From Desulforadius tongensis (GTDB taxonomy: Bacteria > Bacillota > Desulfotomaculia > Desulfotomaculales > Desulfohalotomaculaceae), in assembly GCF_016907915.1 (NCBI RefSeq), contig NZ_JAFBCW010000012.1:1-64000 (forward strand): a stretch of 64,000 nt of DNA, given 5' to 3'. Every line of letters begins with the position of its first letter. The first letter of the stretch is position 1. Below, in pieces: positions 18,735 through 50,357 of the stretch. The notes below the pieces were generated by a model. The model saw nothing but the letters and a program-made list of their open reading frames with translations. It had not been told where the DNA came from and did no database searches. Made by a program: the position numbers and the translations under genes.

Positions 18735-18917
18735 TTACCGTACCGCCATAACAACCAGATGTGCTGCCAGGTAAACTGGCACTGCAACACACATGAAGGG
18801 AAACAACCTGCGTTCCATAAACCGGTCTATCGCATCGTAGGTTTCCATAAGCAAGTCACGGTCGTTATGGCTGCTTTCCGTACTTTCCGTAATCACTAAA
18901 CTTTTTGTTTGCTCCAT
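18735..18917 (-). CDS. small single-pass membrane protein
   Basis: A 60-residue gene with a charged N-terminal half and a C-terminal transmembrane helix (LFPFMCVAVPVYLAAHLVVM). An in-frame TAA stands immediately before its ATG, so the start is fixed. The Shine-Dalgarno AAAGGAGGTG lies 49 nt upstream, with a GC hairpin and a GGGGTACCCC palindrome in between. The same design is seen in neighbouring genes and supports it being real. Function unknown. Confidence 0.55.
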   Translation of the reverse strand: MEQTKSLVITESTESSHNDRDLLMETYDAIDRFMERRLFPFMCVAVPVYLAAHLVVMAVR

Positions 18918-18928
18918 TTATTTTTGCC

Positions 18929-18976
18929 GGGGTACCCCTTGCCGGGGAGTAATAATCCCCGGCGGGCACCTCCTTT
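18929..18976 (-). promoter_or_regulatory. SD-hairpin-start leader of the 60-residue gene
   Basis: AAAGGAGGTG (18976-18967) is followed by the stem GCCGGGGA / TCCCCGGC (18941-18963, 7-nt loop) and the palindrome GGGGTACCCC (18929-18938) before the ATG at 18917. If the hairpins fold, the ribosome site and start codon come close together. Confidence 0.6.
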
Positions 18977-18978
18977 AT

Positions 18979-19164
18979 TTATCTTTCTATGTCGTAGTCT
19001 CCGTTCTCAATATCTTTTATAAGAGCATTAATACTGCCCAATAATGCACCTGCCTTGGCTGCATAAGAATTACCTGTATCTTTATATGTTTCAAATGCTT
19101 CTTCTCCGTTTTCTTTTATCCGTTTTAGACGGGTAATTATTAATTGCTTTTCGATACCTTTCAC
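18979..19164 (-). CDS. small hypothetical protein
   Basis: A gene of about 61 residues, mostly helical and charged (KQLIITRLKRIKENGEEAFE; SYAAKAGALLGSINALIKDI). I place the start at GTG 19164, because AAAGGGGGAAGG lies upstream with a perfect ATACCGGC / GCCGGTAT hairpin (19172-19191) between it and the GTG. An alternative ATG at 19206 has no ribosome site. Its 5' part overlaps the 3' end of the DUF3854 gene by 74 nt. Function unknown. Confidence 0.6.
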   Translation of the reverse strand: MKGIEKQLIITRLKRIKENGEEAFETYKDTGNSYAAKAGALLGSINALIKDIENGDYDIER

Positions 19165-20191
19165 TTTTTTGATACCGGCGGTAGCCGGTATCCTTCCCCC
19201 TTTCATTTATTATCACTATCTTTTTTTGGGCTAACTTTTTTTTGGCTAAAAGCGCATCATCCACACCCTTGGCCCCAGCCCAAACAGCTTTCATAACTTT
19301 ACAACCACGGCTTACCAGTTCGTTGATTAGTTCTCTTACCGCCCTTGCAATCCAAACATTCTGGGTCTGATCCATGTCAAAGGCGATAACTATTTCCGCT
19401 TTCCTGTATTTTTCAATCACCTCTAATACCGGCTTCCACGTTGTAGCCCCTATAAGCCCCAGCACCACAGCACCCAGGTACTGGCTTGCTATGGTCGCTT
19501 TTAGAGGGCCTTCTGTTATCCAAATTCTTCGGTCAGTTAGTTTATTGGGCTTTGCCACATGCACCGGTACTCCGGAACATGAGCCAGCTTTTTTCTTTGA
19601 GCTGCTGAACAGCCGGTATTTTCCACGGCTATCCGGAATATCCAGCCTGGTTTGTAGAGCTTGTATTCTGCCGTCCGTATCAAGTATGGGAATAATAAAC
19701 CCCGGTTTCATGCTGAATGTCCAGTAGCAGCCACCTCTCCTGTTTTCAGCCCGGTAGAACCCGGGAATACCCTCAAGGCTGTGTCCCCTGTCAATAAGTC
19801 TTTTACATATCGACCAGGGGCGTTCAGCCCTGGGAACTGACCGAAAATACTTTATAACATTTTCCGGCAGCCCTCTATTAACCGATAATTCATTACGGTG
19901 TTCCGAAGACAGGCTGAGAAGACTTAAAAAGTCCCTATACACCCTGTCCCGAACTTCCATCGGTGCTGCTGGTACCGGTTTCTCACGGGTTACTCCCTGT
20001 ATATATACTGGTGCGCTTTCCAGCTTATGCAGCCAACCACCGTTTCGCACAGGGTAGTTGCTCGGCACTCTCATGCAGATTGCAATTTTTGAGTTGAACC
20101 CGCACCAGTCAGGCTTGCCGCATATAGGACATGGATACCGGTAACTAACCCTCTGCAACGGCTCAAGATTTCTGGCTGTTTTCATTTTCAT
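19091..20191 (-). CDS. primase-like protein with zinc finger and DUF3854/TOPRIM domain
   Basis: A 366-residue protein. The N-terminal part has Cys residues typical of a primase zinc ribbon (YPCPICGKPDWCGF near residue 20). The C-terminal half carries a TOPRIM/DUF3854 domain (WITEGPLKATIASQYLG, then VIAFDMDQ and a following basic region). Such proteins are usual in ICEs and phages and probably act in DNA priming or replication during transfer. No helicase domain is present. An in-frame TAG lies between the Shine-Dalgarno and the ATG, so the start must be downstream of the leader hairpin, at 20191 or the ATG two codons later. Confidence 0.75.
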   Translation of the reverse strand: MKMKTARNLEPLQRVSYRYPCPICGKPDWCGFNSKIAICMRVPSNYPVRNGGWLHKLESAPVYIQGVTREKPVPAAPMEVRDRVYRDFLSLLSLSSEHRNELSVNRGLPENVIKYFRSVPRAERPWSICKRLIDRGHSLEGIPGFYRAENRRGGCYWTFSMKPGFIIPILDTDGRIQALQTRLDIPDSRGKYRLFSSSKKKAGSCSGVPVHVAKPNKLTDRRIWITEGPLKATIASQYLGAVVLGLIGATTWKPVLEVIEKYRKAEIVIAFDMDQTQNVWIARAVRELINELVSRGCKVMKAVWAGAKGVDDALLAKKKLAQKKIVIINERGKDTGYRRYQKSERYRKAINNYPSKTDKRKRRRSI

Positions 20192-20198
20192 AATCTAA

Positions 20199-20252
20199 GC
20201 GGCAGCAGTGCCGCCCTTCACCTCCTTCGGGTTTTGGGCGGCATGAGCCGCC
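20199..20252 (-). promoter_or_regulatory. structured leader of the DUF3854 gene
   Basis: Hairpin A GGCGGC-TCAT-GCCGCC (20252-20237), the ribosome site AAGGAGGTGAA (20227-20218), then hairpin B GCGGCA / TGCCGC (20214-20199), and only then the ATG at 20191. The arms of A and B are similar enough to pair with each other, which could hide the ribosome site. Confidence 0.6.
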
Positions 20253-20263
20253 TACCTAACTAA

Positions 20264-20950
20264 TTACATAAGCCCTTCTGATTTTAGACTTGTGAATCTT
20301 CCGTCACCGATAATTAGATGATCTAAAATGTTAATACCGATGATTTTTCCCACTTCTATTAGTCTTTTAGTGATATTTATATCTTCTTTACTTGGTGTTG
20401 GGTCACCACTTGGATGGTTGTGCACTAACACAATTCTTGCTGCACTGCGTTTAATTGCACTTTTAAACACTTCTCTTGGGTGTACCAATGATGAATCCAA
20501 TATTCCAATAGTAATAGTTTCTATGGTTATTACCTGATTCTTGGTATCTAAGAGAACAGCTCTAAACTGTTCTCTGTCCAAGTAACGTATTTCATCCATA
20601 AGTGTTGCAATGTCGTTAGGAGTTTGGATAGTAACTTTATTCTCTTGTTTTTCTTTCTGTATCATTCTGTGGATCTCAAAAACAGCAATCAATCTTGATG
20701 CTAATTTGGGTGTAATTCCCTTTAACTGCAGTAACTCTTCTCTAGTCATCTCCATAATTTCCGACAGTTTTTTAGATAATAAGTACATCATTGTCTCATC
20801 GGGAATATTTCCCAATATAGACGTGAGTAAAACCGCCATGCCGGAAGTATCGTTCTTATTAATTTTATAAATTGCTTTTGATTCCATTAGCCTTTTGGCT
20901 AATGTTGTAGCCGGTTTTTTATTTCTATCTTCCCATAATGCTATTTGCAT
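20264..20950 (-). CDS. radC: RadC family protein (JAB/MPN domain)
   Basis: A 228-residue RadC protein with a helix-hairpin-helix region (LLQLKGITPKLASRLIAVFE, residues about 75-95) and a C-terminal JAB/MPN domain. The metal motif is LVHNHPSGDPTPSKEDI, that is HxHPSG with Ser and Asp. Chromosomal RadC was once linked to DNA repair, but copies on mobile elements are common and their role is unsettled. The start is fixed downstream of an unusual leader hairpin: a TAG stands in frame at the Shine-Dalgarno site and no start codon lies in between. Confidence 0.9.
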   Translation of the reverse strand: MQIALWEDRNKKPATTLAKRLMESKAIYKINKNDTSGMAVLLTSILGNIPDETMMYLLSKKLSEIMEMTREELLQLKGITPKLASRLIAVFEIHRMIQKEKQENKVTIQTPNDIATLMDEIRYLDREQFRAVLLDTKNQVITIETITIGILDSSLVHPREVFKSAIKRSAARIVLVHNHPSGDPTPSKEDINITKRLIEVGKIIGINILDHLIIGDGRFTSLKSEGLM

Positions 20951-20956
20951 AATTAC

Positions 20957-21021
20957 GGTACCGGCCCCTCCAGCCGGTACCTACCCTCCTTTCGTTGGAT
21001 AGATTTCCGGCCGGAACGGCC
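20957..21021 (-). promoter_or_regulatory. structured leader of radC
   Basis: Hairpin A GGCCG-TTC-CGGCC (21021-21009), Shine-Dalgarno AAAGGAGGG (20993-20985), then hairpin B GGTACCGGC / GCCGGTACC (20957-20981, 9-bp stem). The ATG at 20950 is 34 nt from the ribosome site in linear sequence. Confidence 0.65.
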
Positions 21022-21059
21022 TTTTAACTTTCTAAACTCCTCCTTCCCGGCGGGAAAGT

Positions 21060-21120
21060 TAAAAAAACAAAAAGAGAACGCCCAAAGTTCAACAGTAAAA
21101 CTTTGGTAATCGTTCTCTTT
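21060..21120 (-). terminator. long nested-stem terminator
   Basis: On the minus strand AAAGAGAACG pairs with CGTTCTCTTT, enclosing an inner stem CCAAAGTT / AACTTTGG. A TTTTTGTTTTTTT tail follows. It ends the transcript of the coiled-coil gene (21174-21623). Confidence 0.75.
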
Positions 21121-21173
21121 CTTCTATCCTGCCGGTACAGGCTTATTCTTGCTATAGTTTCAAGTTATTTTAC

Positions 21174-21623
21174 TTATTTTGCCAGGCTTTCTAACCGAGC
21201 TACCTTTGCCACAAGATAACTGGTGTTTGTTTCAATACTATCTAACTTACTTTCGATACGTTTAAACCGATCATTTTGGACTTCTCTGTCATCATATAAA
21301 CCCCGGAGCTTTTCAATGACCTGATTTTCTATGCGAGATTCTAATTGGAGTTGATTGTTTTCTACTGCTTCCATGCGACCTTCCATCGATTCCATACGAC
21401 CTTCCATCGATTCCATGCGGCCTTCCATCGATTCCATGCGGCCTTCCATCGATTCCATGCGGCCTTCCATCGATTCCATGCGGCCTTCCATCGATTCCAT
21501 ACGGCCTTCTAGTTTGTTTAGGTTATTTCGAATTTCTTCTTGGCCTTCGGCCAGAGCTTGCTGACCTTTGGTTAAAGCTTGCAGCTGCTGTAATACCAGT
21601 TCTTGAAACTTGGTATTATCCAT
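21174..21623 (-). CDS. coiled-coil protein with seven-residue repeats
   Basis: A 149-residue, almost wholly helical protein. Residues about 40-88 consist of near-identical MEGRMES heptads, followed by more heptad sequence (NQLQLESRIENQVIEKL). This predicts a long trimeric or dimeric coiled coil. The heptads come from a 21-nt tandem repeat. A normal GGAAGGGGG ribosome site lies before the ATG. Similar DUF-type spacer proteins occur in Firmicute mobile elements, but I do not know the function. Confidence 0.7.
   Translation of the reverse strand: MDNTKFQELVLQQLQALTKGQQALAEGQEEIRNNLNKLEGRMESMEGRMESMEGRMESMEGRMESMEGRMESMEGRMESMEGRMEAVENNQLQLESRIENQVIEKLRGLYDDREVQNDRFKRIESKLDSIETNTSYLVAKVARLESLAK
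21361..21510 (-). repeat. 21-bp tandem repeat, about seven copies
   Basis: The unit (plus strand CGATTCCATGCGGCCTTCCAT) repeats with few changes inside the coiled-coil gene and codes for MEGRMES. Copy number is likely to vary between strains because each unit keeps frame and heptad register. Confidence 0.85.
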
Positions 21624-21641
21624 ATATATCCCCCTTCCTTT

Positions 21642-22031
21642 CTAAAACGGTACATCTTCATCATTGAAATCGGGTTCATTTTCGGCAATACTACCGTTTA
21701 CATTCTCGTCATCTTTCGGGTAGTCTAAAAACTCAATACTTCTTGCTACTACTTCGGCGGTTTTCCTTCTAACTCCTTCTTTGTCGGTGTAGGAACGCAC
21801 GGTGAGCATGCCTTCCACAGCTATTTTGCGGCCTTTCTGCAGATTGTTGGCAGTTACTTCTGCTAACCTGTTCCAGGTAACGATGTTGATAAAGTCTGCT
21901 TCTCTTTCTCCATGCTGGTTGGTAAACGGCCGGTTTACCGCTAATGGAAACCTTGTTACGGGTACTCCTTTAGGAGTATACCGGGGTTCAGGGTCTTGCG
22001 CCAGTCTTCCGATTAATATCACTTTGTTCAC
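21642..22031 (-). CDS. ssb: single-stranded DNA-binding protein
   Basis: A 129-residue SSB: an OB fold with NKVILIGRLAQDPEPRYTPK at the start, FINIVTWNRLAE and GRKIAVEGMLTVRSYTDKEG, ending in the acidic tail EPDFNDEDVPF that recruits repair and replication proteins. The start is GTG at 22031 with AAAGGATGG upstream. The element-encoded SSB probably coats the transferred single strand. This gene has a plain leader, unlike several of its neighbours. Confidence 0.96.
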   Translation of the reverse strand: MNKVILIGRLAQDPEPRYTPKGVPVTRFPLAVNRPFTNQHGEREADFINIVTWNRLAEVTANNLQKGRKIAVEGMLTVRSYTDKEGVRRKTAEVVARSIEFLDYPKDDENVNGSIAENEPDFNDEDVPF

Positions 22032-22065
22032 TAATTACCATCCTTTCTTTTTTTATTTGCTTTCT

Positions 22066-22119
22066 AAAAAACAAAAAGAGACCGCTAAGGTTTAATAACC
22101 CTTAAATTACGGTCTCTTT
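22066..22119 (-). terminator. long nested-stem terminator
   Basis: AAAGAGACCG / CGGTCTCTTT encloses TAAGG / CCTTA, followed on the minus strand by TTTTTGTTTTTT. It closes the transcript of the Cys-rich gene (22137-22409). It resembles the structure at 21060-21120. Confidence 0.75.
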
Positions 22120-22136
22120 CCGTGTTTCTGATTGTC

Positions 22137-22409
22137 TTACCCCGTCACAAATACCGCAAATAAAGCACCATTACTCATACGGCGGTATTTGGCCTGTTCC
22201 TGTTTCTTTTCTTCAGATTTCTGCGAGGGTTGTTCTTTCTCCACTACTGTAGGAGTAGGTATGAATGTTATGCCCTGAGCCAAACCGCAGCAGCCGTTTT
22301 GCCAGGCCATACATTTTTCTTTTACACATTCCATAAAGTGTTCTTCCCATTCAATCTCGTCCGCATCAATTGTAACTTTCTTTTTTCTAAACGGACACAA
22401 TCTTTCCAT
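22137..22409 (-). CDS. small Cys-rich hypothetical protein
   Basis: A 90-residue protein (starting MERLCPFRKK) with cysteines arranged as CPF...ECVKEKCMAWQNGCCG, a likely metal or Zn site in the first half, then a Pro/Lys/Glu-rich tail. Function unknown; similar short Cys-rich proteins occur in phage and ICE replication modules. The start at 22409 lies after a leader hairpin. A GTG in the 3' arm of that hairpin (22421) is an alternative that would add four residues. Confidence 0.65.
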   Translation of the reverse strand: MERLCPFRKKKVTIDADEIEWEEHFMECVKEKCMAWQNGCCGLAQGITFIPTPTVVEKEQPSQKSEEKKQEQAKYRRMSNGALFAVFVTG

Positions 22410-22419
22410 TCTTCCGGAC

Positions 22420-22482
22420 ACGGGCCTCGGCCCGTATCCTCCACCTCCTTTTAGTTAGTGTAGGATTACAGGCCGTTGGCCT
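22420..22482 (-). promoter_or_regulatory. structured leader of the Cys-rich gene
   Basis: Hairpin A AGGCC / GGCCT (22482-22470), Shine-Dalgarno AAAGGAGGTG (22451-22442), then hairpin B ACGGGCC / GGCCCGT (22435-22420) before the ATG at 22409. The block is clearly related in sequence to the leader at 22930-22990. Confidence 0.65.
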
Positions 22483-22544
22483 AGGTTTTCTCGTGAACTA
22501 CCCTTCCTTCCGCCCTTACGGACGGGGACTTCCCGGCGGGAGAG

Positions 22545-22918
22545 TTAATATTCCAGCTTTTTTAACTGTTCGTCGGAAGCTTTTATAATTCTCTTGTAAA
22601 ATTCCGTGAACTCATCAAAACTAAAATACTTTACAGTAATACTCTCAAAGGGCAACGCATTTCGAATGACCAACCATTCGTCACCGCCGTCAACCTGGTT
22701 AATAAAAGCTATATTACCGAGGTAAAATGCTTTCCCCAGGCACCAATTGCCCTTTTGCATCTTAGAATACAGCTCTTTCAACGTTTCGCAGCAATAGAAG
22801 GATTTCTCTGAGAATGGCGGGTCATAGGCTTCCCTAATCCAAGGATTACGGTTACCTATTTCAAGCCATTTTTTAAGTAAATCCCGTCTAAATCCCGTCT
22901 ATTTCCTTTTATTTCCAT
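22545..22918 (-). pseudogene. hypothetical gene broken by an 11-bp tandem duplication
   Basis: An ATG at 22918 opens a frame (MEIKGNRRDL) that stops after about 20 codons. AATCCCGTCTA is repeated in tandem at 22880-22890 and 22891-22901 (plus strand). Removing one copy restores a continuous frame of about 117 residues that joins RDLLKKWLEIGNRNPWIREA to CCETLKELYSKMQKG and runs to 22545. The remaining intact part alone (22545-22781, 78 residues) lacks a ribosome site. The restored protein has no family I recognise. The break looks recent, as the rest of the frame is undamaged. Confidence 0.75.
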
Positions 22919-22929
22919 TCTTCCAGACA

Positions 22930-22990
22930 CGGGCCTTGCGCCCGCATCCATTCACCTCCTTAAAGTGTTTGGATTACGGGCATTAGGCCC
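22930..22990 (-). promoter_or_regulatory. structured leader of the broken gene
   Basis: Hairpin A GGGC / GCCC (22978-22990), Shine-Dalgarno AAGGAGGTGAA (22961-22951), hairpin B CGGGC / GCCCG (22930-22944), then GTGTCTGGAAGAATGGA. The last block is nearly identical to the leader of the Cys-rich gene. Here an in-frame ATG (22951) also lies right at the ribosome site. Confidence 0.6.
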
Positions 22991-23009
22991 CTATTACGTA
23001 CCTAGATTC

Positions 23010-23393
23010 TTAGAAACCAAGAAGCAAGCCAATTTTATTTTTAACTTCAGCCAAAGTTTCAGTGTCCATATGACCAATTAATTTTACTGAAGCCTTTGGC
23101 ACCACCGTTAAATGATCTGTGACCACTTTCGATGGCTTTCTAAGACCTGCTTCCGGCCACTTCTTAATATTTACTTCCCAGCGATTTCTAGCCGTACTGC
23201 CTGATATTTTTGCCACAACCAAGTCCAGTCTAATGGTGTTGTGTTCAAGTGAACTCAACACTACTGCGGGTCTGGTTTTGCTTCCCGGTTTATCACTGTA
23301 CAGCATATCTTTTACAGTTATCACATCTCCCGGTGCAAATACACCTTTTCTACTAACCTTTTGCTTCTTCCCATTTTCTTTTAAAATACTCAT
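23010..23393 (-). CDS. PemK/MazF-like toxin
   Basis: A protein of about 127 residues with the MazF/PemK fold: VFAPGDVITVKDMLYSDKPG, then KTRPAVVLSS (the basic RP-x-V-V-L motif of the active-site strand), VVTDHLTVVPKASV and a C-terminal helix. Such toxins are mRNA endonucleases neutralised by a cotranscribed antitoxin. I choose the ATG at 23393 (MSILKENGKK), which overlaps the upstream antitoxin-like gene by 41 nt. The pair would stabilise the element in its host. Confidence 0.8.
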   Translation of the reverse strand: MSILKENGKKQKVSRKGVFAPGDVITVKDMLYSDKPGSKTRPAVVLSSLEHNTIRLDLVVAKISGSTARNRWEVNIKKWPEAGLRKPSKVVTDHLTVVPKASVKLIGHMDTETLAEVKNKIGLLLGF

Positions 23394-23565
23394 CGTCTTC
23401 TTCGGTGTAGCCGTCATCGTCTTCATAGAATCCAGTGGCCTCATGAAAGACCACCTTCTTTCCTGCCAGTTCCGGCCACAGCCGACACATAATCCGGTTG
23501 AACAGCCAGTTCTGGTCTTCCCATGTCATTTCTGCAATTTGACGATCTAATTCTTCCCTTGTCAT
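23353..23565 (-). CDS. putative antitoxin partner of the MazF-like toxin
   Basis: A 70-residue acidic protein (MTREELDRQIAEMTWEDQNW; acidic YEDDDGYTEEDDEYF near the C-terminus). It precedes and overlaps the MazF-like gene, the normal antitoxin position. Start ATG 23565 with GAGGAG upstream; a GTG two codons earlier is possible. No DNA-binding domain is apparent. The antitoxin role is inferred from position and acidity only. Confidence 0.65.
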   Translation of the reverse strand: MTREELDRQIAEMTWEDQNWLFNRIMCRLWPELAGKKVVFHEATGFYEDDDGYTEEDDEYFKRKWEEAKG

Positions 23566-23613
23566 TCTCACTTACTCCTCTCATTCCCGGCACGCTCCTT
23601 TCTAACATAAAAT

Positions 23614-23664: not shown

Positions 23665-23736
23665 AAAAAACACAAAAAGACACCTAGCAGAGCAAGCTGA
23701 AAATTTTTTGCTCGCCAAATCTGCCAAAGTGTCTTT
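23665..23736 (-). terminator. long nested-stem terminator
   Basis: AAAGACAC / GTGTCTTT encloses further stems (GCAGA / TCTGC and GAGCAA / TTGCTC) and on the minus strand runs into TTTTTGTGTTTTTT. No gene precedes it; it would end a transcript from the non-coding block 23740-24110. Confidence 0.7.
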
Positions 23737-23739
23737 CAT

Positions 23740-24110
23740 CTTTCGAAAAGAATTCACAAATCTTTCTTAATTTCTTGTCCGGCCTTCTATCCAGTGCATG
23801 GGCATACCCGGACTTCAACCCTTGCACTTTCACCCTGCGTTGCCGCCGCCTCAGCACCGGGTGTGCGGGCTACACATTTACCGGTGGTTAGGTTTCTGCT
23901 TACCTCTCAGCCCCGTGGCGGTGAAAACCCCAAAAACCCTGCACGGGGGTTGGTGCCGTTTCTTCCTGCAACCTAGCATCCCCCCTCGACGGAGCACACC
24001 CGCCGGATGCCGCATTACTGCACGGTTACAGATTTTCTACTTGGATTTACCAGTGTTGGGTTCTGATTCCCCACTGAGCCAAGCTCCTCCTAGACTGTTA
24101 TAATGGGGGT
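23740..24110 (-). ncRNA. candidate structured non-coding RNA
   Basis: This GC-rich stretch has no plausible gene. On the minus strand it can form a chain of stems: GCATCC / GGATGC, AGGT / ACCT, CACCGG / CCGGTG with inner GTGT / ACAC, and GTGCA / TGCAC with inner GGG / CCC. It ends in the terminator at 23665-23736. No family was matched with certainty. The gene-free region 23572-24348 also holds two strong hairpins at 24189-24211 (perfect 10-bp stem) and 24222-24263. Confidence 0.4.
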
Positions 24111-24188
24111 AGCTAACAGCTAGGGATTTTTTTGTGCCTTATTCCCGGCGCGGCCACTCACCGGTGTAGTGTGAATGCCTGCATTTGC

Positions 24189-24263
24189 CATGATAAACGC
24201 TGTTTATCATGCTGCCGGCATGGAAGACTGTAGTAACTCGATTACTACAATGGCCGGTCTTCC
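24189..24263. repeat. two strong inverted repeats in non-coding DNA
   Basis: CATGATAAAC-GCT-GTTTATCATG (24189-24211) and GGAAGAC...GTCTTCC enclosing GTAGTAA / TTACTAC (24222-24263). They could be protein-binding sites, an origin part or a terminator of the unknown RNA; nothing in the sequence decides this. Confidence 0.6.
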
Positions 24264-25759: not shown

Positions 25760-26626
25760 TTATTCTTTAGCTATAGTCTTTGTTTTCTTTTGCTGCCAAT
25801 AAGCACGGTTTTTCTTCCTTCCTCTAATGAGTTCTGGATCAAACAGTGCTAAACTTATCGTTTTTTCTTTTGGGTTAAAGTTATTTACTTTGCATACCAA
25901 CCTATCTCCTAATTTAGGTCTTTTTTGGTTTACCGGGTAGGGAGCAATCCCCACAACCCCCGGACATAGGGCTAAAAATATATTGTTTATACCGAGGCGA
26001 ACCACTGTACCGGTGACAACATCTCCCCTCATATAGCGGACGTGATCCCACGGGTCGACCAGCGAAACCGCTATTTCTCCAGTGGTTTTATCTACCTTAT
26101 CTACAACTGCTTTTATATATTGACCTTCGCTGTACAGTTCGTCCAGCTGCATAGATTTTGAAACCCTGGCTTCTCTGGGGTTAAAACTGACGATAACTCC
26201 ACCGCCAATGTCTACGCCCAGCCATGTATCGGTGACGAATACTACCTGAGCTTCAAATTCCAACCCTTCTTCTGCTATGTTAATTAAATATGTCTTGCTT
26301 TCTTCTATTATCTCCCGGCGGGTGCAGGCTACAAGGTTGCTTTTCTTATCTATAGCTTTGATTCTGATGTTAATTTCTTTTCCCACAAAGAAGTTCATCA
26401 TTCTTTCGGTCGGCAGGCCGGTTTCACTAGCCGGTACTAGTCCTCGAATGTTCGGAATGTCATTAAACTCCAGTTCCCATACTAAGCCTTCCAATGTTTC
26501 ATGTCTTCTAGTGGCAATTACCGCGGCCGTTAAAATGGTATTTCTATCTTTAGCATCGTAAAGCATATTCCAATAATCAATTAATTGATCGTTTAGATTT
26601 CTTTCAGGCGGTAAAAGTGTTTTCAT
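25760..26626 (-). CDS. protein with three S1 RNA-binding domains
   Basis: A 288-residue protein built of S1 OB-fold repeats: about 30-108 (LVWELEFNDIPNIRGLVPAS), about 115-192 (FEAQVVFVTDTWLGVDIGGG) and about 195-268 (GDVVTGTVVRLGINNIFLAL). It resembles a shortened ribosomal protein S1 and should bind single-stranded RNA. It is cotranscribed with the VirD4 gene region and has a normal AAGGAGG leader, preceded by a long hairpin at 26657-26719. An element-borne S1 protein might help translate the hairpin-containing leaders of the element; that is inference. Confidence 0.8.
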   Translation of the reverse strand: MKTLLPPERNLNDQLIDYWNMLYDAKDRNTILTAAVIATRRHETLEGLVWELEFNDIPNIRGLVPASETGLPTERMMNFFVGKEINIRIKAIDKKSNLVACTRREIIEESKTYLINIAEEGLEFEAQVVFVTDTWLGVDIGGGVIVSFNPREARVSKSMQLDELYSEGQYIKAVVDKVDKTTGEIAVSLVDPWDHVRYMRGDVVTGTVVRLGINNIFLALCPGVVGIAPYPVNQKRPKLGDRLVCKVNNFNPKEKTISLALFDPELIRGRKKNRAYWQQKKTKTIAKE

Positions 26627-26761: not shown

Positions 26762-28813
26762 CTACCACTCATTACTTTTTAGTTCCATTAGACCTTTTTT
26801 AGTTTTATAACTAATAACCGTACGACTTTTAGTTAGGGTGGTAGCAGAATCAATAATCTCCGGCAAATCCACTTCAAAACTTCTCGGCGGCACCAGTTCG
26901 CTGACTTCCAATTTCCCGGCTTTCTTTATTTTCTTTGCCTGGGGCAGTTTAACCCAACCAAGTTTTTTAAGGTATAGCGGATAACACCATTGAATCAGGG
27001 CTATACAGTCCAGTGGATCCATTCTTGTTATCTCATCAGGCTCCATCAATGATCTTTTTATTGCACTTTGAGTTTTTTCTGCAAACTTGAAATAATGAAC
27101 CATTGGTATGGTTAAATCTTCTTTTTCAAATCTACCCTCCACTGCTGCCTTACCCAGTATCCGTGAAAACATACTTGCTGTTTCTTGATCACTGGGGGTA
27201 ACCCCTAAAAGAAGTATTGTCGGGCAGTTGGCAAGTATATTCTTGGCCTCGTTCGGCCCGTACACGTCGTCCAGCTGGCTGCGGCCCTGTAGAATGAACT
27301 GGATGTGAATACCGAGGCTGCGGGCGGTGGAAATGATCTCCGAAAACCCGGGAATCTGCCCAATGTTGGCAAACTCATCCAAAAGAAAACGTACCGGCAC
27401 CGGTAGTTTTCCATTGTGCTGATCAGCTAGGCGGTACAGGCGTTTGAACAGGAACATATAGAAGGTGGACAAAATCGGCCGCAGCACCTTTCCTTCCCCG
27501 CTGACCGGTATAACGCAGAACAGGGCTGTCTTTCTGCGGCCCACTGCACCCAGCTTAATCTCGTGTTCCGACAGCAGCGCGGCCAGCGGCTCCGTGGTCA
27601 GGATTTTCAGTTTCGCCGACAGGCCCGACACTGCGTGGTCAAAGTTTGCCGAAGCCACGCCGCGCCAGCGTTCGTAAATGGTGGCACTGATTTTTCCCGC
27701 TTGATACGCGGCTTTAAATTTCACGTCCAGATCTTCTTTTGTCCACGCAGTCAAGCTCATAGCCGCCCGCAGGTGCTGCTGTTCCGCCGGGAAATCGCCC
27801 TTTAAGAGTCCTGTCAAAGCCTCAAGCAGCTGAACTTCCTTTGCAAGAAAGTATGTGCTGTCATCCTTTCCGGCATTGTGAATCAGGCAGGCCGCCATTT
27901 CCGCTATCTCCGCGTCATTCCCACACTCGGAAATGGCGTTCCACCGGTGGCTGACGGCGGGATTGGTCAGGTTGAAAATCCGGACCTCATACCCCTTTTT
28001 CTTCAGCCACCTGGCGGTGGTAGCGGCCAGCTCTCCTTTCGGGTCGGTACAAATGAATGATTGCCCATCTGCAACAGCTGCCACGATATTAGAAAGAACA
28101 AAGGAAAACGATTTTCCGGAACCGGTGCCGCCGAATATGGCAGCATGTCCGGCCAGGCCCGGTTTGCCCTTCGGTGACTTCCCGGGTATCACCCGGACGA
28201 TTTTCCCGTCCAGCTTCCCCAGGACTATTCCGCCGGAACCTTTATCCTTGCCCCTGATTTTAGGCGGGCCAAACTCGCACAGGTGCTTTACGTCCCGCAG
28301 CGCGGCCCACCGCGCTGTACCGAGGGCAGCATTGTCGGCAAGTTTCAACCCGTGCACCCGGTCCGGGCCGTTTCTTTGCCGGTTCCGCCACCACAGGTAA
28401 CCGACGGCCGTGCCTGCGCCGAGCAGCACGTTCAGGTACTGCCACAGGCGTTTCACATCCGGGTGCGTCAGCATTTCCGCCGGCCTGCTCAACCAGGCCC
28501 AGCCGACACTAAATGGGTGGCGGAAAACATAGGGCAGCATTTTCCCGTGGGCAGCGGCTACCGCCTTCTCTTCCGGGGTTGAAAAGATTGAAACGGCTGA
28601 CAGATGGTGCTGTAAATCGTGTACCGCGGCAGCCACACTCCCCACTGTCCAAACATCGGCAAAATAAAAAAGCGGCACGGCAACCGGCACGCTTCCCAGT
28701 ATCAGTGCTGCTTTTTTATGTTCCTGAACCCACCCGCACCCGGGTAATTGTAGTTTAGGTAATTTATCCAGCAACTCTTTAGTTTTCAGCAACAGTTTCA
28801 CCTCCCAATTCAT
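26762..28813 (-). CDS. type IV secretion coupling ATPase VirD4/TraG
   Basis: The coupling protein that feeds the relaxosome to the conjugation channel. The 683 residues include N-terminal transmembrane segments (about 34-56 and 126-142), Walker A FGGTGSGKSFSF (228-238), Walker B VRFLLDEFANIG (near 475) and the TraG/TraD C-terminal region with GRSQLDDVYGPNEAKNILAN. It overlaps the upstream small gene by 35 nt. GGGAGG precedes a TTG codon at 28792, so translation may start seven codons inside the longest frame. The base composition in its first half is clearly more GC-rich than neighbouring genes. Confidence 0.93.
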   Translation of the reverse strand: MNWEVKLLLKTKELLDKLPKLQLPGCGWVQEHKKAALILGSVPVAVPLFYFADVWTVGSVAAAVHDLQHHLSAVSIFSTPEEKAVAAAHGKMLPYVFRHPFSVGWAWLSRPAEMLTHPDVKRLWQYLNVLLGAGTAVGYLWWRNRQRNGPDRVHGLKLADNAALGTARWAALRDVKHLCEFGPPKIRGKDKGSGGIVLGKLDGKIVRVIPGKSPKGKPGLAGHAAIFGGTGSGKSFSFVLSNIVAAVADGQSFICTDPKGELAATTARWLKKKGYEVRIFNLTNPAVSHRWNAISECGNDAEIAEMAACLIHNAGKDDSTYFLAKEVQLLEALTGLLKGDFPAEQQHLRAAMSLTAWTKEDLDVKFKAAYQAGKISATIYERWRGVASANFDHAVSGLSAKLKILTTEPLAALLSEHEIKLGAVGRRKTALFCVIPVSGEGKVLRPILSTFYMFLFKRLYRLADQHNGKLPVPVRFLLDEFANIGQIPGFSEIISTARSLGIHIQFILQGRSQLDDVYGPNEAKNILANCPTILLLGVTPSDQETASMFSRILGKAAVEGRFEKEDLTIPMVHYFKFAEKTQSAIKRSLMEPDEITRMDPLDCIALIQWCYPLYLKKLGWVKLPQAKKIKKAGKLEVSELVPPRSFEVDLPEIIDSATTLTKSRTVISYKTKKGLMELKSNEW

Positions 28814-29164: not shown

Positions 29165-31540
29165 CTACCCCCTATCAAACTCAAAACCTACTTTACCGTT
29201 TTCCATAACCAGAGCAGCGTCAAACTTTTTCCCAGCCTTGGATTTAAAACCCTTGATTATTCCTGTTTTTCCTTTTTTCAGCAGATCCTTTGCCTGTTTG
29301 GCGGTGATTTTTTTTCCGGCTATCTCCTTCCAAATGACGAACTTGCAGCCTTCTTTGTAGCCGCTGCAGCCGTATCCTTTCTTACCCTCGACTACGTTCT
29401 TGCCGCATAAAGGACATTTACCAAGAGGTTCAATATTTCTTTGGGGAAAATCAAATTCCACCTTTCCTTCACCGGACAGCTTCAGTACCGCGTCAAACTT
29501 TTTCCCAGCCTTGGACTTAAAACCCTTGATTACTCCTGTTTTTCCTTTTTCCAGCAGATCCTTTGCCTGTTTGGCGGTGATCTTTTTCCCGGCTATCTCC
29601 TTCCAGATGACAAACTTGCAGCCTTCTCTGTATCCGCTACACCCGTATCCCTTCTTCCCCTCGATTACGTCTTTACCGCACAGCGGGCATTTACCTAATA
29701 TCTCCCTGTCCTGGCCGACAGCATTGCTGGCTTCCTGTTCCTTTGCTATTTGCACCACCTCCCGTGCAAAGTTTTTTATATTTTCTAACCATGTACCGGC
29801 ATCATTCTGTCCTTCTTCAATCTGCCGCAGGCCTTCTTCCCACTCTGCTGTCATTTCTACGGATTTCACCTGTTCCGGCACCAGGTCAATGAGTGCTTCC
29901 CCTTTCGGAGTAGGCACCAGCGTTTTCTTCTGCCGCTGTATATATCCCACCTTGATCAACCTTTCAATGATCGCCGCCCTGGTAGCCGGTGTGCCGATAC
30001 CGCCTGCGGCTTTCAATGTATCGGCCATTTCTTTATCTTTAACCATTTTTCCGGCGTTTTCCATTGCCGCCAGCAGTGTGGCCTCGGTGTACCTCTTGGG
30101 CGGTTTGGTTTGTTTCTCTGGGGTTTCGACCTTTTGAACGGTCACCGTTTCGTTCTCGGCCAGGTGCGGGATGGCCTGTTCTTCTCGGCCGTCATCCTCT
30201 TTCTCCTGCTCCGATTCGTTCCGGTATACCGCCTTCCAACCCCGGTCAAGTTCCACCTTGCCTTTAGACGTAAAACTCTCACCGTTGACGGTAGTAATAA
30301 CCTTTGTCACCGCGTACCTAGCATCCGGGTAGAATACGGCCAGAAACCGGCGCGCAACCAGGTCATATACAAGCTGTTCGTTTTTACCTAAAGCTGATAT
30401 ATCAGGTTTTTTGTCTGTCGGTATAATGGCATGGTGGTCGGTTACCTTCCCATCGTTTACGTACCTTTTCCCGAGCTGGCACTGCCCTTTGGGAATTAAG
30501 TCTTTATACTCCGGCACTTCGCTAAGGGCATTTAACCTGCCCTGAAGCGTACTTACCATTGCCTGCGTAATATACCGGCTGTCAGTACGCGGGTATGTTA
30601 ACAGCTTGTACTTCTCATAGAGTTCCTGGGCTGCATTTAACGTCTGCTGAGCGGTCAGCCCGTACCGGCGGTTGGCTTCTTTTTGCAGGTCATTTAAGTT
30701 AAACAGCGTTGGCGGTTGCTCTACAGATTCCTTTTGATCAACCCCAGTTATCCTACCTGTACCGGTCCCTTTGATTTTTTCCAGTATTGCGTCCAGCTCT
30801 TTCCGGGAAAATAACCGGCCGTTATTATCTCCCACCCACTTTCCCGGGTACGTTTCGCCTGTTTCCTTCCTGAATACAGCCCATATTTCCCAGTATTTTG
30901 CCGGCTTAAAATCCCGTATCTCTCGCTCTCTTGTCACTACCAGGGCAAGCGTGGGCGTTTGTACCCGTCCCACAGATAGGACGGAGTTGTGTCGGACGGA
31001 AAAGGCTCTGGTGGCGTTGATACCTACAAGCCAGTCAGCCTCTGCCCTTGCTTCGGCAGCTGCAGCCAGGTTGTCCATCTCTTTTCCTGCCAGCAGCCGT
31101 TGAAAAGCACTTTTTATGGCCGACGGTGTTGCTTCAGAAAGCCACAGCCTTTTAATTGGTTTTTGGCAGCCGCAGTGCCGGTAAATACGCCGGAAAATCA
31201 GTTCCCCTTCTCTACCGGCATCGCAAGCGTTGATAACTTCTCCTACTTCTGAAGAATTGAGCAGGTTTCTTAGTACCTGCAGCTGTTTTCTGCCTTCCCT
31301 GACGGGTTTTAGCCGGAAGTCCGGTGGTATAATAGGCAGTTGTCCCAGGTTCCACTTTGTCAGACTCTCATCGTATTCATGGGGTTCGGCTAGCTCCAGT
31401 AAGTGTCCGAAAGCCCATGAAACAAGGTACTCCTGATTTTCCAGATGGCCTTCCATTTTTTTGAAACTGCCCAGGACTGCAGCAATATCCCTGGCAACTG
31501 ATGGTTTTTCTGCAATTATTAAAGTTTTTATAGCAAACAC
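29165..31540 (-). CDS. topB: DNA topoisomerase III
   Basis: A type IA topoisomerase of 791 residues: TOPRIM domain at the N-terminus (KTLIIAEKPSVARDIA; NACDAGREGELI), active-site Tyr in LLTYPRTDSRYI (about 320), and two C-terminal zinc-ribbon-like modules (CPLCGKDVIEGKKGYGCSG and CPLCGKNVVEGKKGYGCSG). The two modules, about 85 residues each, are nearly identical, the mark of a recent internal duplication. TopB-like proteins are standard in ICEs, where they resolve transfer or replication intermediates. Start GTG at 31540 with GGAAAGG close by. Confidence 0.95.
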   Translation of the reverse strand: MFAIKTLIIAEKPSVARDIAAVLGSFKKMEGHLENQEYLVSWAFGHLLELAEPHEYDESLTKWNLGQLPIIPPDFRLKPVREGRKQLQVLRNLLNSSEVGEVINACDAGREGELIFRRIYRHCGCQKPIKRLWLSEATPSAIKSAFQRLLAGKEMDNLAAAAEARAEADWLVGINATRAFSVRHNSVLSVGRVQTPTLALVVTREREIRDFKPAKYWEIWAVFRKETGETYPGKWVGDNNGRLFSRKELDAILEKIKGTGTGRITGVDQKESVEQPPTLFNLNDLQKEANRRYGLTAQQTLNAAQELYEKYKLLTYPRTDSRYITQAMVSTLQGRLNALSEVPEYKDLIPKGQCQLGKRYVNDGKVTDHHAIIPTDKKPDISALGKNEQLVYDLVARRFLAVFYPDARYAVTKVITTVNGESFTSKGKVELDRGWKAVYRNESEQEKEDDGREEQAIPHLAENETVTVQKVETPEKQTKPPKRYTEATLLAAMENAGKMVKDKEMADTLKAAGGIGTPATRAAIIERLIKVGYIQRQKKTLVPTPKGEALIDLVPEQVKSVEMTAEWEEGLRQIEEGQNDAGTWLENIKNFAREVVQIAKEQEASNAVGQDREILGKCPLCGKDVIEGKKGYGCSGYREGCKFVIWKEIAGKKITAKQAKDLLEKGKTGVIKGFKSKAGKKFDAVLKLSGEGKVEFDFPQRNIEPLGKCPLCGKNVVEGKKGYGCSGYKEGCKFVIWKEIAGKKITAKQAKDLLKKGKTGIIKGFKSKAGKKFDAALVMENGKVGFEFDRG

Positions 31541-33518: not shown

Positions 33519-34496
33519 TCATGCGGTTTCTAGCCGTCTGACAACACTTAAAAAACCCTTTGCGTTAGCCCACTGGGGATCAGGGAGTATTTGGGTGACG
33601 GGAAATATATTTTTTAATGCCGGCAGAGCATCAGCACCGCCTCCGGCCAGGTAGGCCCTGCGCACAAATGCTGCCCGGTCACCGAGGCGGGCCATTACCT
33701 GGTCAATGATGTTCACGGCTACAGCATCCTTGATTTTTTTAAGTGCGTCTGATAAATCTATTTCATTACCATAGAAAAAGATTTTGCCTTTGTTATTGAT
33801 TAGTTGGTGAACATCAACCGCTGCCAATGGCGTTCCGGTTCGAGTTTGATATTCCGCTGAAATTGCCTCATGAACCGTGTGAACACCGGTTTCTATGCTG
33901 CCGCACAGGCTGGATACCGGCCTCGCTATTCCGCCGGCAATTTCAGCCACCACAAAATCTGTGGTTTTGTATCCCACATCCACCAGCAGCACCAACCCGT
34001 CTGAGGGCAAGTCCGGAGCGGTAAGCAGGGCCCCGGCTCCCTGCGGATATACAACTACTCTGCCGAAGCTCACCCGATTGAAAGAACCGTTGTCTACTTT
34101 CACCTCAGCGTGCAGGCTCATAAGATGTTTGGAAAGCTCTTCTCGCTGGCTCCGGTAGTATGCCACTGGAAGCCCAACTCCCAATATTGCCCCTGGTTGA
34201 ATGTTTAATAGTCTGGCAGATGTAAGTATTAAAATGTCGTGATTAGGATGCCGGTGCTTGTGGCGGTCTAGCGTAAACGTTGCACCTCTACCTTCCCGCA
34301 CAGCCAGTTCTCCTACGAAATGTTTTGTTTTCGTACCGTTCACCTGGCGTATTTCTACCGTATGACCTACGCCTTCTGACATATCCGCTAAAGTCAGTTC
34401 CCGATATGGGGCCACTACAGATGGAATTATTATGCGGTGATCAGGGGATACAGCCTTTACGTGGCTGTATCCCACATCGATGGCTATAGCTTGCAT
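33519..34496 (-). CDS. ParM/StbA-family actin-like partition protein
   Basis: A 325-residue actin-fold ATPase: phosphate 1 loop IAIDVGYSHVKAV (about 5-17), phosphate 2 LVLLVDVGYKTTDFVV (about 168-183), adenosine motif YLAGGGADALPALKN (about 288). It should form filaments that move element copies apart. Start ATG with AAGGAGTGA upstream. Its presence with a ParR-like gene and repeats suggests that the element spends time as a replicating circle. Confidence 0.85.
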   Translation of the reverse strand: MQAIAIDVGYSHVKAVSPDHRIIIPSVVAPYRELTLADMSEGVGHTVEIRQVNGTKTKHFVGELAVREGRGATFTLDRHKHRHPNHDILILTSARLLNIQPGAILGVGLPVAYYRSQREELSKHLMSLHAEVKVDNGSFNRVSFGRVVVYPQGAGALLTAPDLPSDGLVLLVDVGYKTTDFVVAEIAGGIARPVSSLCGSIETGVHTVHEAISAEYQTRTGTPLAAVDVHQLINNKGKIFFYGNEIDLSDALKKIKDAVAVNIIDQVMARLGDRAAFVRRAYLAGGGADALPALKNIFPVTQILPDPQWANAKGFLSVVRRLETA

Positions 34497-49750: not shown

Positions 49751-49777
49751 ATAACCCGGGTGTCTATCCCGGGTTAT
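49751..49777 (-). terminator. terminator overlapping the GGDEF gene stop
   Basis: ATAACCCGGG / CCCGGGTTAT with a 7-nt loop and TATTTTTAAC on the minus strand. The stop codon of the GGDEF gene lies within the loop region. Confidence 0.75.
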
Positions 49778-50357
49778 ACTGTTTACCTCTGTTACGCCCG
49801 CTTTCTTTGGCTTCATACAGTGCGTCATCGGCCTTTTTGAATACTTCTTGTACGGCAGCACCGTCAATAGGGTACACCGCGCAACCAAAACTCAAAGTTA
49901 CGGGTATTTCCATCTCTTGAATTTTAAAAGGTTGAGAACTTACCAATGTGCGCACTCTTTCTCCTATATCAAAAACTTTCCTATAGCAGGGAGTTATCAA
50001 TACGAATTCTTCCCCGCCGTACCTTGCTAAATAATCGTCCGGCTTTGTGGCGTTTTTTGCCCTGACCGCAAATATTTTCAACACTTCGTCCCCCACTGGG
50101 TGTCCGTAAGTGTCGTTTATTGACTTGAATTTATCCAGATCAAGGACAAGAATACCAAAGGCGGCGTTCTGCCTATCTGCTTCTTGAACTGCATACGAAA
50201 GTGTCGCTTCGTATACCTGCCGGTTGGGCAATCCGGTTAAAAAGTCCAAATTTTCCTGCTTACATTCAGGCCAAACAATCCTTAAGTCCCTAAGGTTATT
50301 TAACCCAAAGATTTGGTAGGGCGATATTGTTTCCCAAAAAAACTTAATTCTTTTCAT
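49764..50357 (-). CDS. diguanylate cyclase (GGDEF domain)
   Basis: A 197-residue protein consisting of a short lead and a complete GGDEF domain: LTGLPNRQVYEATLS, LDLDKFKSINDTYGHPVGDE, the signature ARYGGEEFVLI, and ALYEAKESGRNRG at the end. It should make c-di-GMP from GTP. The RxxD inhibitory site five residues before the signature reads KPDD, so product inhibition is probably lost. No sensor domain is attached. Its place between the two pilus gene sets suggests that it controls them. Confidence 0.9.
   Translation of the reverse strand: MKRIKFFWETISPYQIFGLNNLRDLRIVWPECKQENLDFLTGLPNRQVYEATLSYAVQEADRQNAAFGILVLDLDKFKSINDTYGHPVGDEVLKIFAVRAKNATKPDDYLARYGGEEFVLITPCYRKVFDIGERVRTLVSSQPFKIQEMEIPVTLSFGCAVYPIDGAAVQEVFKKADDALYEAKESGRNRGKQYNPG

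What the first reader, a model, noticed from the sequence alone, without database searches (positions are those of the whole stretch)
18929..22990. Hairpins placed between Shine-Dalgarno and start codon in at least five neighbouring genes
In the genes starting at 18917, 19164, 20191, 20950, 22409 and 22918, a strong purine-rich ribosome site is followed by a GC-rich hairpin and only then by the start codon, 25-50 nt away. The stems differ in sequence but keep base pairing (GGTACCGGC/GCCGGTACC, ATACCGGC/GCCGGTAT, ACGGGCC/GGCCCGT, GCGGCA/TGCCGC, GCCGGGGA/TCCCCGGC), which is natural covariation. In-frame stops (TAG before 20191, TAA before 18917, TAG at the radC ribosome site) exclude upstream starts. 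Single cases are known in phage T4 (genes 38 and 25), where the hairpin brings the two sites together. A whole module built this way suggests a shared translation control.
Basis: partly seen in the sequence, partly recalled or inferred. Interest (0 to 1): 0.8.

Follow-up and report, generated by a model that had tools for sequence, protein, structure and literature searches.

The report
Two-state hairpin leaders in mobile element
A family of mobile DNA elements in spore-forming bacteria starts many of its genes with an RNA that can fold two ways, only one of which brings the ribosome's landing site next to the start codon, and almost always carries nearby a ribosomal-protein-S1-like gene that could throw the switch.

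Summary
Five canonical Shine-Dalgarno/hairpin/start leaders lie in 4.6 kb; shuffles give 0.003, and 400 kb of host sequence gives 4. Homologues across Desulfotomaculia and two other Firmicutes families keep the arrangement. Homologues that lack the hairpin start at the same codon with normal spacing.

The spacer hairpin is only half of the element. Four of the six window leaders, and about 100 relatives, carry two more arms upstream of the Shine-Dalgarno (SD). Arms 1-4 can pair as 1:2 + 3:4, which puts the SD 9-10 nt from AUG (ON). Or they pair as 1:4 + 2:3, one long hairpin that separates SD from AUG (OFF). OFF is the predicted ground state (68 of 79). The SD is about equally exposed in both states, so the switch changes SD-AUG distance rather than SD access. 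No Rfam family matches.

Leader-bearing elements nearly always encode a three-OB-fold S1-like protein, usually about 2-3 kb upstream on the same strand (Fisher p 3e-14, confounded by shared element). Keeping the G-poor linker before the SD single-stranded flips the predicted fold to ON in 70 of 79.

Architecture: confident. Distance switch: likely. S1-like trigger: plausible, untested.

The parts
22916..22991 (-). Four-arm leader of the (frameshifted) gene starting at 22918
   Evidence: CM match 80.5 bits; SD at about 22961, hairpin TGGATGCGGGC/GCCCGTGTCTG
22878..22899 (-). 11-bp tandem duplication GACGGGATTTA x2 that frameshifts the 22918 gene
   Evidence: sequence; an intact homologue is encoded in L058
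22407..22483 (-). Four-arm leader of gene 22409 (CPFR protein family)
   Evidence: CM match 75.6 bits; MFE -34.6 kcal/mol, z -4.6
20948..21022 (-). Four-arm leader of radC (20264-20950)
   Evidence: CM match 29.6 bits; MFE -41.8, z -5.8; protein matches Pfam RadC
20189..20252 (-). Four-arm leader of the DUF3854 primase-like gene (19091-20191)
   Evidence: CM match 19.8 bits; MFE -33.6, z -4.5
19162..19204 (-). SD plus spacer hairpin (19171-19192) of gene 19164; arms 1 and 2 absent
   Evidence: homologue in L013 has SD and ATG at normal spacing without hairpin
18915..18976 (-). Variant leader of gene 18917 (60-aa membrane protein): hairpin 18941-18963 plus a further competing arm
   Evidence: five homologues with the same layout (family 4)
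25760..26626 (-). S1-like protein, three OB folds; candidate trans-acting factor; ordinary leader without hairpin
   Evidence: Pfam S1, bS1 relatives, AlphaFold pLDDT 86, best fold match bS1 in a 30S mRNA delivery complex; leader read

Best explanation
The leaders are two-state RNA switches that set the distance between SD and start codon. Four arms surround the SD: 1 and 2 before it, 3 and 4 between it and AUG. When 2 pairs with 3 and 1 with 4, the RNA is one long hairpin with the SD near its tip and AUG beyond its base, too far for initiation (OFF, predicted ground state). When 1 pairs with 2 and 3 with 4, the 3:4 hairpin is looped out and AUG lies 9-10 nt from the SD (ON). I propose that the element's S1-like protein holds the G-poor linker between arm 2 and the SD single-stranded, alone or on the 30S subunit, and so flips the leaders of the downstream module (SSB, RadC, ArdC-like, primase-like genes, depending on the element) to ON. 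Shown by sequence comparison: the leader, its conservation, complementarity of both states, linkage to the S1-like gene. Predicted: state energies and the flip. Inferred: that ON/OFF equals translation, and that S1-like is the trigger.
For: Spacing: total GGAGG-AUG 35.3 nt; with hairpin removed 9.8 +/- 1.9 (65 of 79) against 7.8 +/- 3.0 in host genes. Hairpin-less homologues keep the same start with normal spacing. Arm 2:3 complementarity z -3.15, 86% below -2, against -0.08 and 2% in 93 host leaders. Double changes keep pairing 73% (3:4) and 57% (2:3), slid controls 47% and 37%. The two states are near in energy, OFF lower by 5.0 kcal/mol on average. Removing arms 1+2 raises P(3:4) from 0.00 to 0.98; holding the 18-nt linker open raises it to 0.96, 70 of 79. 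The linker has 1-3% G at its core. S1-like gene in 27 of 32 leader-bearing genomes of the class, divergent copies in three of the other five, same linkage in the separate family f31, about 2 kb upstream. Most S1-like loci opened have 2-7 leaders downstream. In E. coli the first three OB domains of S1 suffice to unfold structured mRNA on the 30S, and S1 plays no major role in B. subtilis translation (PMC3858243).
Against: No expression, probing or binding data. Part of the 2:3 complementarity follows automatically from two similar palindromes; the tail-only test is weaker (z -1.33, 27% below -2). Covariation is modest and ortholog pairs are not independent. Holding the linker open also blocks part of arm 2, so the flip is partly built in. 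The leader/S1-like association is confounded by both being parts of one element; S1-like copies without leaders exist (first copy in G040, G041, G015; decayed in G057, partial in G034). Gene 19164 has only the spacer hairpin.
Confidence: 0.5

Rival explanations
1. One reading: static split ribosome binding sites as in T4 genes 38/25. The spacer hairpin just bridges SD and AUG; upstream arms are incidental or insulate the SD.
For: Looped-out spacing close to normal; gene 19164 has the hairpin without upstream arms; T4 precedent, spacing 22 to 5 and 27 to 11 nt (PMC3014915).
Against: Upstream arm 2 is complementary to arm 3 in most leaders (z -3.15) and predicted to win over 3:4 in 68 of 79.
Confidence: 0.2
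2. Kinetic switch without trans factor: the nascent RNA forms 1:2, then 2:3 unless a ribosome lands on the SD before arm 3 appears; the leader senses ribosome supply or transcription-translation coupling.
For: In the nascent RNA ending after arm 3, arm 3 pairs upstream in 78 of 79.
Against: Holding only the SD (15 nt) open favours 3:4 in just 29 of 79; does not explain the linked S1-like gene.
Confidence: 0.15
3. Fold-back silencing of read-through transcripts, as in transposase genes: only the long hairpin matters and it keeps the genes silent unless transcription starts between arm 2 and the SD.
For: The long hairpin is the MFE, z -4.5 to -5.8.
Against: Only about 8-20 nt lie between arm 2 and SD and a -10 box would fall in GC-rich arm 2; the ON-only part of arm 4 would not be kept; the SD core is not better hidden in the long hairpin (0.52 unpaired in the free leader against 0.43 with 3:4 enforced).
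Confidence: 0.08
4. DNA-level palindromes: operators of a DNA-binding regulator, or REP-like mobile palindromes that happened to settle at gene starts.
For: Similar palindromes recur within one element; DNA palindromes and RNA hairpins look alike.
Against: Fixed position to SD and AUG, G:U pairs kept, sequence changes with pairing, genome-wide model hits only at gene starts of the element.
Confidence: 0.05

Closest known systems
Split (accommodated) ribosome binding sites of phage T4 genes 38 and 25 (PMC3014915)
   Same: A hairpin between SD and AUG restores a functional spacing; close relatives keep it, distant ones lack it
   Different: Here a regulon of many genes in mobile elements, with upstream competing arms that make it two-state and a linked S1-like gene
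SD-sequestering leaders (T4 gene e, I-TevI, mobE; IS10 fold-back)
   Same: An upstream arm pairs across the start region of a mobile or phage gene
   Different: The SD core is predicted equally exposed in both states; what changes is the distance to AUG
Attenuator-type four-arm leaders and translational riboswitches
   Same: Mutually exclusive 1:2/3:4 and 2:3 pairings around a signal
   Different: No conserved aptamer or loop sequence, no Rfam match, no leader peptide recognised
Ribosomal protein bS1
   Same: Tandem OB/S1 domains, best sequence and fold match of the linked protein
   Different: 288 aa, three OB folds, far below NCBIfam cut-offs, encoded in a mobile element

Membership tests
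Split RBS (T4 gene 25/38 type) | Stable hairpin between SD and start codon | tested here: met
Split RBS (T4 gene 25/38 type) | Hairpin shortens spacing to a functional distance | tested here: met
   35.3 to 9.8 +/- 1.9 nt
Split RBS (T4 gene 25/38 type) | Disrupting the hairpin lowers translation | not testable with these tools
   needs reporters
Split RBS (T4 gene 25/38 type) | The spacer hairpin is the structure formed by the free leader | tested here: not met
   P(3:4) median 0.00 in the full leader by thermodynamic prediction, above 0.5 in 10 of 79
RNA thermometer / SD-sequestering leader | SD hidden in one state and exposed in the other | tested here: not met
   SD core unpaired 0.52 in the free leader, 0.43 with 3:4 enforced
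Known riboswitch or Rfam leader family | Match to a curated covariance model | tested here: not met
   no leader match
IS10-type fold-back inhibition | Own promoter lies downstream of the upstream arm | tested here: inconclusive
   A linker of about 8-20 nt leaves no room for a sigma-A promoter outside the arms; transcript ends unknown
Ribosomal protein bS1 (linked protein) | Multiple S1/OB domains | tested here: met
   three OB folds read from the model, Pfam S1, fold match 9gut_B E 9.6e-15
Ribosomal protein bS1 (linked protein) | Passes curated bS1 family cut-off | tested here: not met
   63.6 bits against cut-off 368
Ribosomal protein bS1 (linked protein) | Binds 30S and unfolds mRNA | not testable with these tools
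   needs biochemistry

The most novel reading that the evidence does not exclude
A mobile-element regulon controlled by a new class of RNA switch that sets SD-AUG distance, thrown by the element's own S1-like protein: in effect a private translation-initiation factor with its cognate leaders.
Probability: 0.35. Interest if true: 0.92.

Novelty: new variant of a known kind. Interest (0 to 1): 0.78.

Why it matters
Split ribosome binding sites have been a T4 curiosity; here is a large natural set (about 100 leaders, more than 30 genomes) in which the same geometry recurs with different sequences, and in which the switching variable appears to be SD-AUG distance. If the S1-like protein is the trigger, mobile elements carry their own initiation factor for a private set of mRNAs, which makes the open question of how Firmicutes ribosomes handle structured mRNAs directly testable. 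The leaders would also be ready-made parts for translation control.

Tried and rejected
Ribosome coupling to the upstream gene: stop codons lie mostly 26-64 nt before the SD but range from 1 to 279, so it cannot be general. CsrA binding: a GGA loop occurs in only some hairpins. Internal promoter between arm 2 and SD: no room. Pair counting on the 13-sequence alignment A5 showed no double changes because that class is too similar, so orthologue pairs were used. Some weak model matches outside the class (for example G155, G202, G250, G387, G409, G473) look like chance. My first reading, that the long hairpin hides the SD, was withdrawn. Literature searches found T4 and S1 papers but no report of these leaders; the library is not complete.

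Full report
OBSERVATION. Counting only strong SD + hairpin + start codon 3-8 nt after the hairpin, there are 5 in 18.5-23.1 kb and none elsewhere in the 64-kb window; a 400-kb sample of the same genome has 4, and shuffles of the 4.6 kb average 0.003. A covariance model of 13 leaders finds 3 places in the 2.58-Mb genome, all here. The first-stage finding is therefore not chance and is confined to one module of what looks like a conjugative element: VirD4-like and topoisomerase genes (26762-28813, 29165-31540; named from their sequence, not profile-tested), T4SS pilin, a tyrosine recombinase next to a tRNA-like fragment (ARAGORN calls no tRNA).

START CODONS. In-frame stops are confirmed for 20191, 18917 and radC. 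Homologues settle most of the rest. The 19164 gene has in L013 no hairpin at all: AAAGGAG, 7 nt, ATG at the same residue. The primase-like gene in L014 (Thermanaeromonas) has GGAGG and ATG at 8 nt, no hairpin. SSB homologues have normal spacing in six elements, and in L054 a spacer hairpin. So the hairpin is an optional insert in an otherwise normal initiation region. The 22918 gene is broken by an 11-bp duplication; L058 has an intact homologue that begins right after its hairpin.

CONSERVATION. The layout recurs before radC, DUF3854 primase-like, ArdC-like (Pfam ArdcN), DUF6573, CPFR-family, SSB and unknown genes in dozens of genomes of the class and in families f31 and f46 of the phylum. 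The model matched 32 of 113 class genomes and 22 of 398 phylum genomes at E 0.01, the weakest of the latter probably chance. Two genomes are named by size: G040 matches Desulfotomaculum acetoxidans (4,545,624 bp, PMC3035247) and G057 matches D. ruminis (3,969,014 bp). No Rfam family matches.

ARCHITECTURE. Upstream of the SD most leaders carry an arm complementary to the 5' arm of the spacer hairpin, itself preceded by a short partner arm. Folded whole, five test leaders give one long hairpin (1:4 outside, 2:3 inside, SD near the tip) of -34 to -42 kcal/mol, z -4.5 to -5.8. The alternative is 1:2 plus 3:4. Over 79 leaders the long hairpin is lower by 5.0 kcal/mol on average and lower in 68; 35 differ by under 5. 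Arm 2:3 complementarity is far above shuffles (mean z -3.15, 86% below -2; host leaders -0.08, 2%). Much of this could follow from two similar palindromes; the part outside them (tail before the SD against SD and lower arm 3) is weaker (z -1.33). Among 584 ordered orthologue pairs, double changes keep pairing in 73% of cells for 3:4 and 57% for 2:3, against 47% and 37% when one side is slid by two. Both states therefore have support, 3:4 the stronger.

WHAT CHANGES. The SD core is about half unpaired in the free leader and no more so with 3:4 enforced (0.52 and 0.43), so this is not classical SD hiding. What changes is distance: 35 nt in total, 9.8 +/- 1.9 nt with 3:4 looped out (65 of 79 leaders; in several of the others a bulge splits the lower stem), against 7.8 +/- 3.0 in ordinary host genes. 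P(3:4) is 0.00 (median) in the free leader and 0.98 without arms 1 and 2.

TRIGGER. Looking for a shared gene, I found a protein of 288 aa in 11 of 14 element regions. It has an S1 domain, its relatives in PDB and NCBIfam are bS1, AlphaFold gives three OB folds as I read its strands (pLDDT 86) and the best fold match is bS1 in a 30S mRNA delivery complex. It is present in 35 of 113 class genomes; 27 of the 32 with a leader match have it (Fisher p 3.5e-14); a profile search finds divergent copies in three of the other five. In f31 it lies about 2 kb upstream of the first leader in all five genomes. Of the S1-like loci opened afterwards, most have 2-7 leaders downstream; exceptions are the first copy in G040, G041, G015, a partial copy in G034 and a decayed one in D. 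ruminis. The association is confounded by common membership of one element. A physical link exists: the linker just before the SD is almost free of G (1-3% at its core), and holding 18 nt of it single-stranded flips P(3:4) to 0.96 (70 of 79), whereas holding only the SD does so in 29. The 18 nt include part of arm 2, so this is suggestive only. In E. coli the first three OB domains of S1 are enough to unfold mRNA on the 30S, and S1 plays no major role in B. subtilis translation (PMC3858243).

VERDICT. What it works like is the T4 split ribosome binding site (PMC3014915), but the predicted ground state is the other fold, so I do not file it as a plain member. The S1-like trigger is a hypothesis with strong linkage and no direct test.

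Noticed in passing
window 22878-22899 (-): An 11-bp tandem duplication (GACGGGATTTA twice) frameshifts the gene starting at 22918; intact homologues exist (L058).
   Followed up: yes
window 23740-24200 (-): Non-coding stretch of about 400-500 nt before gene 23571; of the stretch compared only the last 160 nt resemble L013 (84%). No Rfam match; could be an oriT or an unknown RNA.
   Followed up: partly
window 21174-21623 (-): Coiled-coil gene with several near-identical 21-bp repeats (GGAAGGCCGCATGGAATCGAT).
   Followed up: no
window 33519-34496 and 49764-50357 (-): The element region also encodes an actin-like (ALP/MreB-like) protein and a GGDEF diguanylate cyclase.
   Followed up: no
window 23010-23571 (-): PemK/MazF-like toxin gene with a small upstream gene, possibly its antitoxin, directly before the leader module.
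   Followed up: no
L185 -6047, L055 12678, L064 9679, window 18915-18976: Leaders of the 60-aa membrane protein family (and one ArdC-like gene) have a further competing arm after the spacer hairpin, a possible five-arm variant.
   Followed up: partly
window 21060-21140, 22070-22130, 23690-23720 (-): Terminator-like hairpins with T-rich tails (TTTTTGTTTTTT) recur between genes of the module, so the genes may also be controlled at termination.
   Followed up: no
L202 (IMG/VR contig, 108 kb): A leader of the same class occurs in a contig filed as viral; it may be a misfiled conjugative element.
   Followed up: no
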